Of a stretch of 64,000 bases of DNA, positions 31,481 through 52,360 are shown in pieces. The position numbers and the translations under genes were made by a program. Origin of the DNA: Rhodosporidiobolus odoratus (taxonomy: Eukaryota; Basidiomycota; Microbotryomycetes; Sporidiobolales; Sporidiobolaceae); NCBI GenBank assembly GCA_034387635.1, contig JAOANU010000002.1:186001-250000 (forward strand). The letters are read 5' to 3'. Numbering within the stretch: the stretch's first letter is position 1; each line of letters begins with the position of its first letter. Below the pieces are notes generated by a model. That model was not told where the DNA came from. It made no database searches and saw only the letters and a program-made list of their open reading frames with translations.

Positions 31481-34051
31481 TCAAGCCTGAACGATGGTTG
31501 CGTGCGTGTCAAGCCCCACTTCCTTCTCCTTGTCGCTGCTGACATCGGAGGTGTAGTCGCTCGACGAATAAGAGGTCGGGAGGGGGGCGGGCGGAAAGAG
31601 GTAGGAGAGAGCGGCATAGATAGCCCCCGCCGTCACGCAACCAACGGGATAGACTCCGGCGTAGACGTAGACCGCACCGTGAGGAATGCCAATGTTCGGG
31701 TTGATGTTGTAGATCATGCCGGGTAGGGTGGGAACACTGAGAGGATCATTTCGTAAGCCAGTGTTTTGTGACACTCGAGGCACGAGAGGGAGCGGACGCA
31801 CCAACCGCAAACGAAAGCGGCGACAGCGCGAAGGTTGAAGCCTCCAGTGTACCAGTAAACTGAGCGGTGCTTGATGAATAGGTCGGGTAGGGCGATCGAG
31901 CGGTGGTGGACAAGGAAAAAGTCGGCCATGAGGATGCCGCCGATAGGCGCGAGGAAGACGGAGTAGCCACTGTGAAATTTTAGAGGTTATCACTTGCCAC
32001 GATTCGAGGGACGAACAGCCCGTAAAGGTTCGAGAGGGGATGATAGAGAGGAAGGGAGAAAGAGCTGAAAACACATGAAAGTGACACATACCCGAGGAAT
32101 GCCGTGAATGTCTTCGCGCTATTCTGGATAATCCACGGGCATGTCACGAGACCAAGAATGGCGGTAATGTACTGTCCACGACGGATGTTGATCCACCGGG
32201 GGAACATGACCATGAGGTCGTTACCGACGGCGGTCTGCACGCAGAGAGCAGATCAGTACTCTGTCCGTCGCGAGTATGAAAGGCAAAGAAGGAGTCCGAA
32301 GAAGCCCAGGAGTGAACGCCTCGGCGTGTGAGAGAAGTAAAACCGGGAAACGGGATAGAGGGGGAGACAAGACGGGTTTTTGCAGTAGAGAGAGAGAGAG
32401 ACTGACAGAATTTGCGCTGAGGTTTGTTGAAAGCTTTGACAGTGACAGGTGTAAGGGCAGAGTAAGCAGAGTAAAGAAGAGAGAGGGAGTCAGGGGGAGA
32501 AAGCGGAAAATCGGTTAATCTCTGCCACACCCTGGCAGATCGGAGCACGAGTACTCACCACCGCGAGGCCCCAGCAGAATGCTGTGAAGAACTTGGGCGC
32601 GCGACCCATGAGTGCCGAAACCTTGGTCAATCAAACAAAGTCATTACTCGCGCTAGGTCAAGTCAAGGCTAATCGCGTAAAGGCATACCTGTAAAGGACT
32701 CCAGGTCGTAACACCATAGATGACCTGAGCCGAGGAGGTAACGACCACGCCGAGAATGGCGCAGAGCGTCACAAGGAAAGTGAGCGAGAGGATATTGGTT
32801 GCCGGAACTGCACGAGGGTTCCTTGCGTAACGAGCTGGGCAGTGGCAAGCAATCAGTATATCATCTTGATAAGGGTGGCCTCAGGTGGAAACATACTGAA
32901 GTCCGCAAGGTTGAGGGAAAGAGTCGATTTTGGAGCAATGGCGGAGGTGAACGCGCTCATAAAGACCAGACCCGGGGTGCGGCCGTCAGTGATGTGGGTC
33001 GACTTCGAGAAAACCGGTCCAAAGCCGTGAGCCCGACCAACAGCCCAGCCGAAGAGGGAAATGCCGAAGATAGGCATAAGAACCTGCGGAAGATTGGGAA
33101 GGTTGGCGAAATCAGCGTCCCGCGGTCGAGCATTCTCCTCCTCCCCGTTTGCACCTGGGTGACAAGGGAAGAAAGACTTACAATCTTGACAAGGAAGAGG
33201 TAGTGTAGCTTCGAGATGTGGATGTGGAGAAGGGGAAGCTCTGCGGAAGAAGCAAAGTGGTCAGTTGCCGGGCGGCTTGAAAGGAAAAGGATAGGATGAC
33301 GCACGAATGAGGTAGAAGATGAAGAAGCAGAGTAGCATGGACGATGTAACATGCGCAGACTCCGGCAGGTGGTTGGGGAAATCGATGAACGACGGCCAGA
33401 TCGCTTGAAGCATGACTTGTATGGCTTGCCCCCCTTGGTACGTCTGCGTTCCGAACCAGATGATTGCCGCTACGGAGCGGCAGATCACGGCGATGTAGGT
33501 GCCTCGAATACCGAAGCAGGTGCGGGCGTAGCTGTACAGAAAAGGTCAGCTGACTCCGAAAGATAAGGAAAGGACTACGCACGAGGGAAAGTTGATACCG
33601 TAGTGTGCTCCCACCCATCCATTGGCAGCGCAGGCGAGGGAGATGACGAAGTGGCCAAGGAGAACCGCACCGATGGTTGCGCCAGGAGAAAGACCGGCAG
33701 AGACGGCAGACGAAGCCACCTGATACTGGCTTATACCGAACGCCTCGGCTACCCAATAGCCGGTGAGGGTAAAAGTTCCCCACGTACCTGCAAAGGGGAC
33801 ACAAACACAATCGATTGCGAAGGGGAACAAGGAGAAGAAGTTAGTTTCGCCGTCAGAAGACAGGAGAAAAGATGCTACGCACGCTTCGGGTCGTCCAGGG
33901 GAACTGGCAGCATATCCTTCTCCGCTTCGAGGCTGATGCCCTCCGTCTTGTCGCCATCAGCGGGTGTAAACATCGAGCCATCTGGCCCAACGACCATCGA
34001 ACTGGTCTCCCGCTCGATGCGGAAGCGGTTGATAAGGGTGGAAACGGTCAT
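31481..34051 (-). CDS. NCS1-family nucleobase/hydantoin/allantoin permease
   Basis: Twelve-helix cation-coupled permease of the plasma membrane. Blocks visible: LPVPLDDPKR, WGTFTLTGYWVAEAFGISQY, GATIGAVLLGHFVIS, GAHYGINFPVYARTCFGIRG, WFGTQTYQGGQAIQ, VLMPIFGISLFGWAV, FTSAIAPKSTLSLNLADFSRY, CWGLAVTAVGNDLMVMFPRW, NIRRGQYITAILGL, GGYSVFLAPIGGILMADFF and VYVYAGVYPVGCV. The ATG at 34051 starts MTVSTLINRFRIERE. The loop SLNLADFSRYA is the NCS1 helix-8 signature. An intron near 32390 holds a (GA)n run. The family includes yeast uracil, uridine and allantoin permeases and the bacterial hydantoin carrier Mhp1. Its position beside the racemase/carbamoylase/oxidase genes makes hydantoins or allantoin plausible substrates, but this is inference. 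Confidence 0.9.
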
Positions 34052-49866: not shown

Positions 49867-52360
49867 ATGTCGCTCAACCTCGACCTTATCATCCAAAACG
49901 GAGTGGTGGTGACTGCCGCCGACGAGACGGCATGCGATATCGGTGTCAAGGACGGGAAGGTAGTGCTGTTGATGGCGAACATCCCGGTGCCAGAAGGATG
50001 TGAAGTGATCGACGCCGAAGGAGGCTACGTTACCGTGCGTTCTTTTCTTTCCCATCCTCCAAAAAACATTGCGAGGCTAACTTGAGTATGTTCTCCCGCG
50101 CAGCCCGGACTGGTAGACTCTCATGTACATATTGCGCAAAGCGCAGCGAAGAGTCTTGGAGCAAAGAGTGCGGATGACTGGACCAGTGCGAGCCGGAGTG
50201 CCGTTGGAGGTACGTTCCTCCCTTCTCTGGCGTCTCCGTCCTTGACCTTGGGAGGCTTACTGACAGACACTCGCTTGCAATACATCAGGTGGGTGCACCA
50301 CTGTCATTGCCTTCGCCGTCCAGAATCGAGGTTGTTCGATGCAAGCCGCCGTCGACGCTTACCACGAACTGGCGACTGACAATGCCCATTGCGACTATGG
50401 GTTCCATGTCATCGTGACGGACCCGAGCGAGGACATGATGCACGGAGAGTTGCCGAGGTTGATCGAGCAGGGCATCACGAGGTGCCTCACGATCCCCTTA
50501 CGCCCTAACTCTTTTCTCCCATTCCTCCCATTCATCGCTCTCTTGCAATCTCCGTTCTGCCTTGCTCCTCGTCCTCAAAGTCTTACCTCGGGTCGACACT
50601 TCAGGTGGGCTGAGCGCGACTTAGCAGTAGCTGACCCTGCTGTCCCTTCGGTAGTATCAAGATTTATTCGACCTACCCGGCGCTGAAGCTCAACGACGAG
50701 GAGATCCTCAACTGCTTCTTCGCAGCGAGAAAGTATGGCGTTACTACCAGTGAGTACTCGCTGCGTCACCTTGACCCCCTTTCTCTACCTTCGCCCGCTA
50801 ACCTTTTCTTACTCGTCCTTCTCGCAGTGGTTCACGCCGAGAACAGCGACATGATTACCTGGATGGTCAAAGATCTCGCCTCCCGCGGCATGACCGCCCC
50901 CTGGAACCACGGGACCTCGCGCCCTCCTCTCGTTGAATCGGAAGCTACTAACCGAGTTCTCGCCCTCTCCGAATTGATGGATTGCCCCGTTTTGTTCGTG
51001 CACGTCAGCGCACCGTACGCGTTCAAGGTCATTCGGGAGGCGCAGACGAGGACTATGAGCGTGTTTGCCGAGACTTGCCCGCACTACTTGCTGTTGACGG
51101 GGAAGGAGATGAGGGCTCCTAACTTCGAAGGTACGACTCTTTATGCCATCTACCCCCCCCTTCGGGTAGATAGTGTCATCGTGGTACTCTGCCTCGCCCT
51201 GGGTTCTGTCCGCTAACCTTGCCTTTCTCGCCTCGACTCACTTGAACTGCAGGTGCGAAAGCCTGCTGCGCTCCTCCTCTCCGCGAAAACCCTGAAGACC
51301 GAGAGCGGGTGTGGGAAAACACTGTCAACGGTACTGTTACTGTGCTGAGTTCCGACCACGCGCCGACAAACTTCTACGACCCAAGCGGAAAGCAGGTACG
51401 TTGTCGCCTTTTGTCCACTGCCCCAATGCGTCCTGTACTTTCTCGCTCGGACCGTCTCCTCTCATGCATCTCAGCGTCCTCCATGCTCTAGTGTGAGAGG
51501 TCTACTGTGTTGTAGCGGGTGCTGATCAGCTGTTCCGTCCGCAGCTCGGTTTGACGAAAAACCCTGGCAACAACCCCAACGGTGACTTCCGATACATCCC
51601 TAACGGTCTTCCCGGAGTGGAGACTCGTGGTCCCTTGATGTGGAGCGAGGGCGTTTGCAAAGGTGCGTTTCTACCTTTGCGACAGCCCGAATCACCGGGC
51701 CGGGTTGTGCACTAGAAGCTGACAAGCTTTCTTCCTCGCAGGTCGCATGTCCCCCTCAAAATTCGTTGAGCTGAACTGTACCAACGCCGCAAAGCTCTAC
51801 GGCATGTATCCGCAAAGTACACCCGCTTTTCTTGTCATTCTGCGCTCTTTACTGACGCCGACTCCTTCCTCTCTTTCTTGACCTCCTTCTGTGTGCAGAG
51901 GGTACTATCCAACCCGGCTCCGATGCCGACTTTGTCATCTGGCGCAAGCCGTCCGCTCGCAAGCCGTCTACTGTCACTGTCAAGAACGTAAGTCATCCCG
52001 CCGCCGTTTCCCCGTTTTTTCTGCGTCACCTACAAGAACTTGTAAGCTGACGACAACGAGACCTTCTTCTCTTTCTTTTACCCAAAGCTCCACTCCGCCT
52101 GCGACTACACCCCCTTCGAAGGTCACGACATCCAAGACTGGCCTGTCAAGACTATCTTGCGCGGCAAAGTCGTCTACGACGGGGCGACAAACGCGGTCGT
52201 CGCCCCGAAGGGATACGGTCGATTCCTCAAGAGGGGTAAGAGTTCGTTGCAGGGTCCGAGGGGGAAGTGGGTTAACGAATGGAGGCCTCAGTATGTTGAG
52301 GAAGCGGAGGAGACGAAAAGGGAGGCCGAGCCTGGGTGTAGCAGCAGTTGTGATCACTGA
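49867..52360 (+). CDS. Dihydropyrimidinase / D-hydantoinase
   Basis: Cyclic-amidohydrolase opening the ring of dihydropyrimidines or 5-substituted hydantoins. Start [16 protein letters not shown]. Metal and substrate residues appear in order across about ten exons: HxH in GLVDSHVHI, carboxylated Lys in [11 protein letters not shown], His in [10 protein letters not shown], His in VLFVHVSAP, Asp in [10 protein letters not shown]. Then come [20 protein letters not shown] and [10 protein letters not shown]. The metal centre is complete. It ends in a longer than usual acidic/Ser-Cys tail ([10 protein letters not shown]). The family cannot separate Pyd2 from hydantoinase, but neighbours acting on D-carbamoyl amino acids and hydantoins favour hydantoinase. 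It lies 3.8 kb beyond the oxidase. Confidence 0.92.

What the first reader, a model, noticed from the sequence alone, without database searches (positions are those of the whole stretch)
31481..52360. Apparent eukaryotic hydantoin-utilisation gene cluster
Within 21 kb lie an NCS1 permease (family of the hydantoin carrier Mhp1), a Zn2Cys6 regulator, a hydantoin-racemase homologue with both cysteines, a hydantoinase/dihydropyrimidinase with a full metal site, an N-carbamoyl-D-amino-acid hydrolase with its Glu-Lys-Cys triad and ICNDRRW motif, and a D-amino-acid oxidase with a PTS1. In order these would import, racemise, ring-open, decarbamoylate and oxidise 5-substituted hydantoins. The bacterial 'hydantoinase process' operons have the first three enzymes; ending in a peroxisomal D-amino-acid oxidase would be a eukaryotic version. 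I do not know of a description of such a cluster in yeast.
Basis: partly seen in the sequence, partly recalled or inferred. Interest (0 to 1): 0.92.

Follow-up and report, generated by a model that had tools for sequence, protein, structure and literature searches.

The report
Conserved fungal hydantoin-to-D-aspartate gene cluster
A red yeast carries, close together, the genes to turn ring-shaped hydantoins into a D-amino acid (probably D-aspartate) and burn it, and the same genes sit together in distantly related mushrooms and yeasts, so this looks like a real fungal nitrogen-scavenging pathway of which I found no description.

Summary
The genes are there. Spliced by hand: RAC (hydantoin/allantoin-racemase family), CARB (N-carbamoyl-D-amino-acid hydrolase), DAO (PTS1 tail) and HYD (hydantoinase/dihydropyrimidinase, full metal site), in Rhodosporidiobolus odoratus or a very near relative. 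The clustering is conserved: of 22 basidiomycete genomes with locus tags for two or more of the four, 21 have them within 7 tags, in Microbotryomycetes, Tremellomycetes and two orders of Agaricomycetes. Eleven of 120 listed CARB homologues, nine of them named ascomycetes, are fused to a racemase domain. One correction changes the pathway: the oxidase groups with D-aspartate oxidases (324 bits to 9vpf, 136 to Rhodotorula DAAO) and has the three pocket arginines of the human enzyme. Best reading: a eukaryotic hydantoinase route ending in acidic D-amino acids: a hydantoin such as 5-carboxymethylhydantoin, then N-carbamoyl-D-Asp/Glu, D-Asp/Glu, and a 2-oxoacid in the peroxisome. Substrate and activities are inferred. 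The NCS1 permease, regulator, class II aldolase and HbpS-like genes are neighbours of unproven membership; an LAA2-like gene lies between DAO and HYD. Counter-examples exist (Kwoniella shivajii, Meredithblackwellia, Flagelloscypha).

The parts
31481..34051 (-). NCS1-family permease, 540 aa, 10 exons; candidate importer, membership unproven
   Evidence: Hand splice; PF02133 300 bits; TIGR00800 315 bits, under its cut-off of 353; Mhp1 68 bits; paralogous stretches on four other contigs at 35-52%
34678..37721 (-). Zn2Cys6 transcription regulator, approximate model; candidate pathway regulator, membership unproven
   Evidence: Zn_clus 21.0 (cut-off 21), Fungal_trans 26.8 (cut-off 23) on a hand-joined model; splice model uncertain
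38071..39459 (-). Class II aldolase/adducin family protein (start uncertain); role in the route unknown
   Evidence: NF004855 284 bits, cut-off 255; exons
40102..40894 (+). RAC: Asp/Glu/hydantoin racemase family, 240 aa, 1 intron (exons 40102-40342, 40413-40894), C80 and C194
   Evidence: only PF01177 gene found in the genome
42406..43877 (-). CARB: N-carbamoyl-D-amino-acid hydrolase, 341 aa, 5 exons, E47/K128/C185
43878..44183 (.). 306-bp intergenic region between the divergent CARB and DAO start codons (possible shared promoter)
   Evidence: Gene models; no significant Zn-cluster dyad found
44184..46088 (+). DAO: D-aspartate-oxidase-type FAD oxidase, 392 aa, 10 exons, R232/R262/R314, C-terminal AKL (PTS1)
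46225..47008 (-). HbpS-like (heme-degrading domain) protein, 162 aa; role unknown
   Evidence: PF03928 50 bits, cut-off 25, on a partial model; NF002696 102.5 bits, under its cut-off of 146; splice
47400..49153 (-). LAA2-like protein (approximate limits); judged an interloper, not part of the route
   Evidence: PF17104 34.7 bits, cut-off 24.7
49867..52360 (+). HYD: hydantoinase/dihydropyrimidinase, 520 aa, 10 exons, H63/H65/K158/H190/H246/D323

Best explanation
This is a conserved basidiomycete catabolic gene cluster: a eukaryotic hydantoinase route whose last enzyme is a D-aspartate oxidase. Proposed flow: a 5-substituted hydantoin with an acidic side chain (5-carboxymethylhydantoin or hydantoin-5-propionate) is kept racemic by RAC; HYD opens the D-form to N-carbamoyl-D-Asp/Glu; CARB removes the carbamoyl group (giving NH3 and CO2); D-Asp/Glu enters the peroxisome, where DAO oxidises it to oxaloacetate/2-oxoglutarate, NH3 and H2O2. 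Shown: gene families, catalytic residues, conserved linkage of the four genes, racemase-carbamoylase fusion in other fungi, D-aspartate-oxidase arginines and, in red yeasts, a PTS1 tail. Inferred: order of steps, D-stereochemistry in vivo, acidic substrate. Only possible: import by the NCS1 permease and control by the Zn2Cys6 gene.
For: CARB: 198-224 bits to eleven solved D-carbamoylase sequences, while chains named only beta-ureidopropionase score 24; fungal rows form one clade (34 of 78 rows, support 99, quick unrooted tree) apart from 44 bacterial rows. Bacterial relatives: of the best 80 loci, 23 carry a hydantoinase ORF over 300 bits in the fetched flank and 21 of those 23 also a racemase; none of the 80 carries a DAO match at E 1e-8. 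Linkage in fungi (window's own species included): within 7 tags CARB-DAO in 9 of 10 genomes, DAO-RAC 10 of 10, DAO-HYD 5 of 5, CARB-HYD 4 of 4, HYD-RAC 5 of 5, CARB-RAC 3 of 3. PF00795+PF01177 in one protein in 11 of 120 listed CARB rows. DAO: D-aspartate oxidase 9vpf 324 bits, Rhodotorula DAAO 136, human D-aspartate oxidase 96; R232/R262/R314 align with human Arg216/Arg237/Arg278, which passages of PMC8260693 give as the three arginines around bound D-Asp; one clade with the Vanrija humicola enzyme (47 rows, support 97). Standard PTS1 tails in 19 of 21 listed red-yeast orthologues, 20 with YKL. Other routes: allantoinase and allantoicase lie elsewhere, URC4 is present, no Pyd3 match.
Against: No activity or expression data. 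HYD shares a fungal clade with L. kluyveri Pyd2 and is the only strong dihydropyrimidinase-type gene found in the genome, so it may serve other substrates. RAC's best solved relatives are called hydantoin (41 bits) and allantoin (38 bits) racemase. Unlinked cases: Kwoniella shivajii, listed DAO 2241 tags from CARB; Meredithblackwellia eburnea, CARB, DAO and RAC on three contigs; Flagelloscypha, RAC and HYD on different contigs; Pseudohyphozyma, HYD on another contig than CARB, DAO and RAC. In the human Arg216 place three Hymenochaetales with linked genes have Tyr or His and ten listed DAO rows Lys; ChDDO itself has Met at the Arg237 place. The agaricomycete and most tremellomycete DAO rows lack a PTS1-like tail. 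Among bacteria the 34 top-ranked CARB relatives (L006-L039) have no hydantoinase ORF over 300 bits in the flank. LAA2-like and HbpS-like genes intervene in the window. A natural source of acidic hydantoins in fungi is not shown.
Confidence: 0.6

Rival explanations
1. General hydantoin route: the cluster handles many 5-substituted hydantoins, and the DAO is promiscuous.
For: Same three enzyme families as in bacterial operons. In Cryptococcus, passages of PMC4489021 say that each overexpressed DAO gene rescued at least two dao mutants of strain R265 on D-Asp, though in H99 not all of them did, so DAO specificities overlap.
Against: DAO carries the acidic-substrate arginines and groups with D-aspartate oxidases. 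A Rhodotorula-type general DAAO is a separate gene elsewhere in the same genome (L005).
Confidence: 0.2
2. Purine side branch: RAC is the Dcg1-type allantoin racemase and the permease is an allantoin/uracil carrier; the clustering serves allantoin use.
For: RAC is the only PF01177 gene found; a passage of PMC3646786 lists yeast DCG1 as allantoin racemase in the DAL cluster; NCS1 matches allantoin permease models, though far under their cut-offs.
Against: Allantoinase and allantoicase lie on other contigs; HYD scores 470 for the dihydropyrimidinase/hydantoinase model and 240 for allantoinase, under that cut-off of 358; a D-carbamoylase and a D-aspartate oxidase have no known place in allantoin breakdown (general knowledge); RAC-type domains are fused to CARB in other fungi.
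Confidence: 0.1
3. Reductive pyrimidine degradation: HYD is Pyd2 and CARB a beta-ureidopropionase; DAO is coincidental.
For: HYD is closest among solved structures to the L. kluyveri dihydropyrimidinase (450 bits) and in one clade with it. Unclassified CN_hydrolase genes lie on five other contigs, so a nitrilase-type beta-ureidopropionase elsewhere is not excluded.
Against: CARB is a D-carbamoylase by sequence and tree; no Pyd3 match (no fungal positive control was run); URC4 is present; CARB-DAO linkage in three classes.
Confidence: 0.05
4. Only RAC-CARB-DAO(-HYD) work together; NCS1, regulator, aldolase and HbpS-like genes are chance neighbours.
For: Conserved linkage was seen only for these four, because only these four were searched; an LAA2-like gene in their midst shows that unrelated genes occur here. 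Compatible with the best explanation.
Against: NCS1 and a Zn2Cys6 gene next to a catabolic cluster are a usual fungal arrangement (general knowledge).
Confidence: 0.5

Closest known systems
Bacterial hydantoinase operons (D-hydantoinase, hydantoin racemase, D-carbamoylase; the 'hydantoinase process')
   Same: Same three enzyme families physically linked at 21 of the 80 bacterial loci, with the same catalytic residues; 'D-system' described in passages of PMC7431475
   Different: Eukaryotic intron-containing genes on both strands; a D-aspartate-type oxidase is linked; no DAO match at E 1e-8 in any of the 80 bacterial loci
Fungal D-aspartate oxidase (Vanrija/Cryptococcus humicola ChDDO)
   Same: Same clade, 49% identity over 92%, PTS1-like tail
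   Different: The main texts of PMC8708985 and PMC7831105 hold neither 'hydantoin' nor 'carbamoyl' (term counts); in red yeasts the gene sits in a hydantoinase cluster; ChDDO lacks the second arginine
Yeast DAL (allantoin) cluster with DCG1
   Same: Nitrogen-scavenging cluster with an allantoin racemase gene and an allantoin permease (passage; their families PF01177 and NCS1 recalled)
   Different: No allantoinase or allantoicase here; D-carbamoylase and D-aspartate oxidase instead
Lachancea kluyveri PYD2 dihydropyrimidinase (2fty; organism recalled)
   Same: Nearest solved structure to HYD; one fungal clade
   Different: PYD2 works with an M20-type Pyd3 (recalled), for which no match was found here
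Mhp1 hydantoin carrier
   Same: NCS1 family
   Different: Only 68 bits over two segments; specificity unknown

Membership tests
Hydantoinase-process gene set | Cyclic amidohydrolase of the hydantoinase/DHPase family with complete metal site | tested here: met
   H63/H65/K158/H190/H246/D323; TIGR02033 470 bits, cut-off 393
Hydantoinase-process gene set | D-carbamoylase with Glu-Lys-Cys triad, grouping with D-carbamoylases | tested here: met
Hydantoinase-process gene set | Racemase of PF01177 with two catalytic cysteines | tested here: met
   C80, C194; 53 of 53 rows keep both
Hydantoinase-process gene set | Conserved physical linkage | tested here: met
   21 of 22 genomes within 7 tags; racemase-carbamoylase fusions; unlinked cases in the Against line
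Hydantoinase-process gene set | Activity on hydantoins and N-carbamoyl-D-amino acids | not testable with these tools
   Needs enzyme assays
D-aspartate oxidase | Three substrate-pocket arginines (human 216, 237, 278) | tested here: met
   R232, R262, R314; by sequence alignment, not by structure
D-aspartate oxidase | Groups with characterised D-aspartate oxidases rather than general DAAO | tested here: met
   Bits; clade of 47 rows with ChDDO, support 97; the human and Rhodotorula rows are long branches
D-aspartate oxidase | Peroxisomal targeting signal | tested here: met
   AKL tail; standard PTS1 in 19 of 21 listed red-yeast orthologues; localisation itself not tested
D-aspartate oxidase | Preference for D-Asp/D-Glu | not testable with these tools
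   Needs assay
Reductive pyrimidine (PYD) pathway | Beta-alanine synthase (M20-type Pyd3) in the genome | tested here: not met
   TIGR01879: no match; no fungal positive control was run
DAL/allantoin cluster | Allantoinase or allantoicase in the cluster | tested here: not met
   HYD fails the allantoinase cut-off; allantoinase-like exon on C12 and allantoicase on C1
Hydantoin permease (Mhp1-type) | NCS1 family | tested here: met
   PF02133 300 bits
Hydantoin permease (Mhp1-type) | Hydantoin rather than nucleobase/allantoin specificity | tested here: inconclusive
   Mhp1 68 bits; no NCBIfam model passes its cut-off

The most novel reading that the evidence does not exclude
Basidiomycetes have a dedicated, ancient route for acidic hydantoins in which N-carbamoyl-D-aspartate/glutamate is made and decarbamoylated, and at least one branch of fungal D-aspartate oxidase evolved to burn the D-Asp/D-Glu that this route makes inside the cell, rather than D-Asp taken up from outside. 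It would be the eukaryotic counterpart of the bacterial hydantoinase process, an internal source of D-aspartate, and a possible drain for carbamoyl-aspartate that has cyclised to 5-carboxymethylhydantoin.
Probability: 0.42. Interest if true: 0.82.

Novelty: new variant of a known kind. Interest (0 to 1): 0.7.

Why it matters
The natural role of hydantoinase, carbamoylase and racemase sets is poorly understood even in bacteria, where they are known mainly as industrial catalysts (general knowledge). A conserved eukaryotic version tied to D-aspartate oxidase gives a concrete hypothesis for what these enzymes are for in fungi, suggests a function for a Dcg1-like racemase family, links fungal D-aspartate oxidase to an internal source of its substrate, and names eukaryotic enzymes for making D-amino acids. 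It can be tested by gene deletion in tractable red yeasts.

Tried and rejected
Automatic exon prediction alone gave wrong junctions, so introns were set by eye from frame displays. Rejected: CARB as beta-ureidopropionase; HYD as allantoinase; DAO as general DAAO. My first reading of the DAAO Met213 position was off by two residues because the solved chain is numbered differently; it was replaced by the alignment to the human D-aspartate oxidase. A scan of 66 CGG/CCG dyads in six upstream regions gave nothing significant after that many tests (best p 0.003). Two positions (R228, H239) are basic in 23 of 23 basidiomycete CARBs and in 3% and 6% of 80 bacterial ones: a weak lead on substrate specificity, not used. 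Transcriptome paper PMC10006432: the words hydantoin, carbamoyl, racemase and dihydropyrimidinase do not occur in its main text; supplementary look-ups were capped at 0. Paper searches; no title or abstract start listed describes such a fungal cluster, but several listings were cut (for example 15 of 37 papers, 20 of 34) and the library lacks most subscription journals. Structure prediction was not used.

The tally uses the locus tags printed in the best 120 rows, typed by hand. Left out of it: rows without tags; the R. nylandii DAO row (another annotation version); the R. kratochvilovae HYD row (a sister strain); and the second, distant DAO rows of Kwoniella dejecticola and Kwoniella sp. CBS 9459, so that the nearest DAO was counted there. 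The genomes are related, so they are not 22 independent cases. Tag distance stands in for map distance; flanking DNA of other fungi could not be fetched. Listed proteins stand for 90% identity clusters, so some species may be hidden. In one search, 33 of 120 DAO rows shorter than 330 aa were left out of the residue counts.

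
Full report
What is there. The window is from contig C2 of a 24.8-Mb, 45-contig genome. Its DAO, RAC and the searched piece of HYD are 98%, 96% and 98% identical to proteins of Rhodosporidiobolus odoratus JCM 11641, a sporidiobolalean yeast. Genes were spliced by hand from frame displays, and three lengths match that species' annotation exactly (DAO 392, RAC 240, HYD 520 aa). Order from left: PSP-domain protein (28.5-30.3 kb), NCS1 permease (-), Zn2Cys6 regulator (-), class II aldolase (-), RAC (+), CARB (-), DAO (+), HbpS-like (-), LAA2-like (-), HYD (+). 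CARB and DAO diverge from a 306-bp gap. The tags of JCM 11641 (RAC 8330, DAO 8332, HYD 8335) fit this order if CARB, HbpS-like and LAA2-like take the free numbers; its CARB is not itself listed.

What each enzyme is. CARB is a D-carbamoylase: 198-224 bits to eleven solved D-carbamoylase sequences, the next solved sequence 57 bits, chains named only beta-ureidopropionase 24. E47 and K128 are kept in 121 of 121 aligned rows, C185 in 120 with one gap. HYD passes the D-hydantoinase/dihydropyrimidinase model and fails allantoinase. Its best solved relative is the dihydropyrimidinase 2fty (450 bits, against 339 for the D-hydantoinase 1nfg; organisms Lachancea kluyveri and Burkholderia recalled), and a quick tree puts the 35 fungal rows with that enzyme (support 99; the 2fty and 1nfg rows are long branches). 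RAC belongs to PF01177, with solved relatives called hydantoin racemase (41 bits) and allantoin racemase (38 bits); both cysteines are kept in 53 of 53 rows.

The oxidase is of D-aspartate-oxidase type. It scores 324 bits to the D-aspartate oxidase 9vpf, 144 and 136 to two D-amino-acid oxidases (7ct4; Rhodotorula 1c0i) and 96 to the human D-aspartate oxidase 6rkf. R232, R262 and R314 align with human Arg216, Arg237 and Arg278; passages of PMC8260693 say that these three surround bound D-Asp. Rhodotorula DAAO has a gap and a Tyr at the first two. Among 87 of the 120 listed homologues (those of at least 330 aa) the three places hold Arg in 53, 70 and 87. The characterised Vanrija humicola enzyme, in the same clade, has Met at the second place, so that residue is not essential. 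The genome holds a separate Rhodotorula-type DAAO (L005) and a second DDO-like gene that keeps the first arginine but reads GGYAERDNW around the second (L004).

The cluster is conserved. Locus tags printed allow a test of linkage without the flanking DNA. Of 22 genomes with tags for two or more of the four families (one of them the window's own species), 21 have them within 7 tags; for two random genes of a 6500-gene genome that chance is about 0.002, though the genomes are related and not independent. They are 15 red yeasts of Microbotryomycetes (class looked up for R. odoratus only), three Agaricomycetes (Coniferiporia weirii of Hymenochaetales; Phellinidium pouzarii, order recalled; Tetrapyrgos nigripes of Agaricales) and four Kwoniella (Tremellomycetes), of which three are linked. 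Rows with equal contig lengths add Pseudohyphozyma bogoriensis (CARB, DAO, RAC on a 37.7-kb contig), Tremellales sp. Uapishka_1 (CARB, DAO on 76 kb) and Phenoliferia (CARB, RAC on 11.4 kb), and more weakly, on long contigs, Phellopilus nigrolimitatus and Dendrothele bispora (CARB, DAO, HYD), Stereum hirsutum (CARB, HYD) and Collybiopsis luxurians (DAO, RAC). Against: Kwoniella shivajii (2241 tags apart; its listed DAO lies outside the clade of the linked Kwoniella genes), Meredithblackwellia eburnea (CARB, DAO and RAC on three contigs), Flagelloscypha (RAC and HYD on different contigs) and Pseudohyphozyma's HYD (another contig). Eleven of 120 listed CARB rows are single proteins with both domains: nine from named ascomycetes and two from unnamed sources; in the three printed the carbamoylase comes first. 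This is an independent sign that the two act together.

Comparison with bacteria. Twenty-three carry a hydantoinase ORF over 300 bits in the fetched flank, and 21 of those also a racemase ORF; none of the 80 carries a match to DAO, NCS1, the aldolase or the HbpS-like protein at E 1e-8. The 34 best-ranked loci (L006-L039) have no such hydantoinase ORF, so the closest bacterial carbamoylases are not in full operons; some flanks are short. In the CARB tree (34 fungal rows and 44 of the 80 loci) fungi form one clade (support 99) with 14 basidiomycete rows inside it (support 100), which suggests an old fungal gene rather than a recent transfer into red yeasts.

Alternatives. An allantoinase-type exon (346 bits against a cut-off of 358) and allantoicase lie on other contigs. 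URC4 (PF07958; name recalled) is present and no M20-type Pyd3 was found, which speaks against reductive uracil breakdown; the Pyd3 search had no fungal positive control, and CN_hydrolase genes on five other contigs were not classified. HYD is the only strong dihydropyrimidinase-type gene found, so it may have more than one task.

How it probably works. RAC keeps the hydantoin racemic, HYD opens the D-form, CARB releases the D-amino acid, and DAO, the only one of the four with a PTS1 tail in the window, oxidises it. Standard PTS1 tails are seen in 19 of 21 listed red-yeast DAO rows, 20 with YKL, but not in the agaricomycete and most tremellomycete rows, so the peroxisomal end may be special to some lineages. 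With a D-aspartate oxidase at the end, 5-carboxymethylhydantoin or hydantoin-5-propionate are the best guesses for the substrate; their biological occurrence is recalled. Every step of flux is inferred.

Known or new. The bacterial 'D-system' of hydantoinase, racemase and D-carbamoylase is well described (passages of PMC7431475). In ten searches of open-access papers no title or abstract start listed describes a fungal cluster of this kind or a link to D-aspartate oxidase. The words hydantoin and carbamoyl do not occur in the main texts of PMC8708985, PMC7831105 and PMC10006432 on the Vanrija enzyme. The library does not hold most subscription journals, and some listings were cut. I rate it a new variant of a known kind.

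Noticed in passing
P0048, P0049, P0061, P0068, P0069, P0071, P0093, P0097, P0108, P0113, P0116: Proteins of about 590 aa, nine of them from named ascomycetes, join a D-carbamoylase domain and a hydantoin-racemase domain in one chain.
   Followed up: partly
window 46225-47008: HbpS-like (heme-degrading domain) gene between DAO and HYD; no role in the route is evident.
   Followed up: no
   Followed up: no
P0165, P0170, P0173 against P0166, P0168, P0169: Kwoniella species have a D-aspartate-oxidase gene near CARB and, in two of them, a second one far away; in the tree the two sorts fall in different groups.
   Followed up: partly
P0145, P0147, P0154: In Hymenochaetales the place of human Arg216 is His or Tyr although the genes are linked; substrate preference may have shifted there.
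   Followed up: no
L004 (G000:C3:1234500-1238500): Second DDO-like gene in the genome with the first pocket arginine but not the second.
   Followed up: partly
P0286: A Panaeolus protein joins the racemase domain to a calcineurin-like phosphoesterase; possibly a misannotated gene fusion.
   Followed up: no
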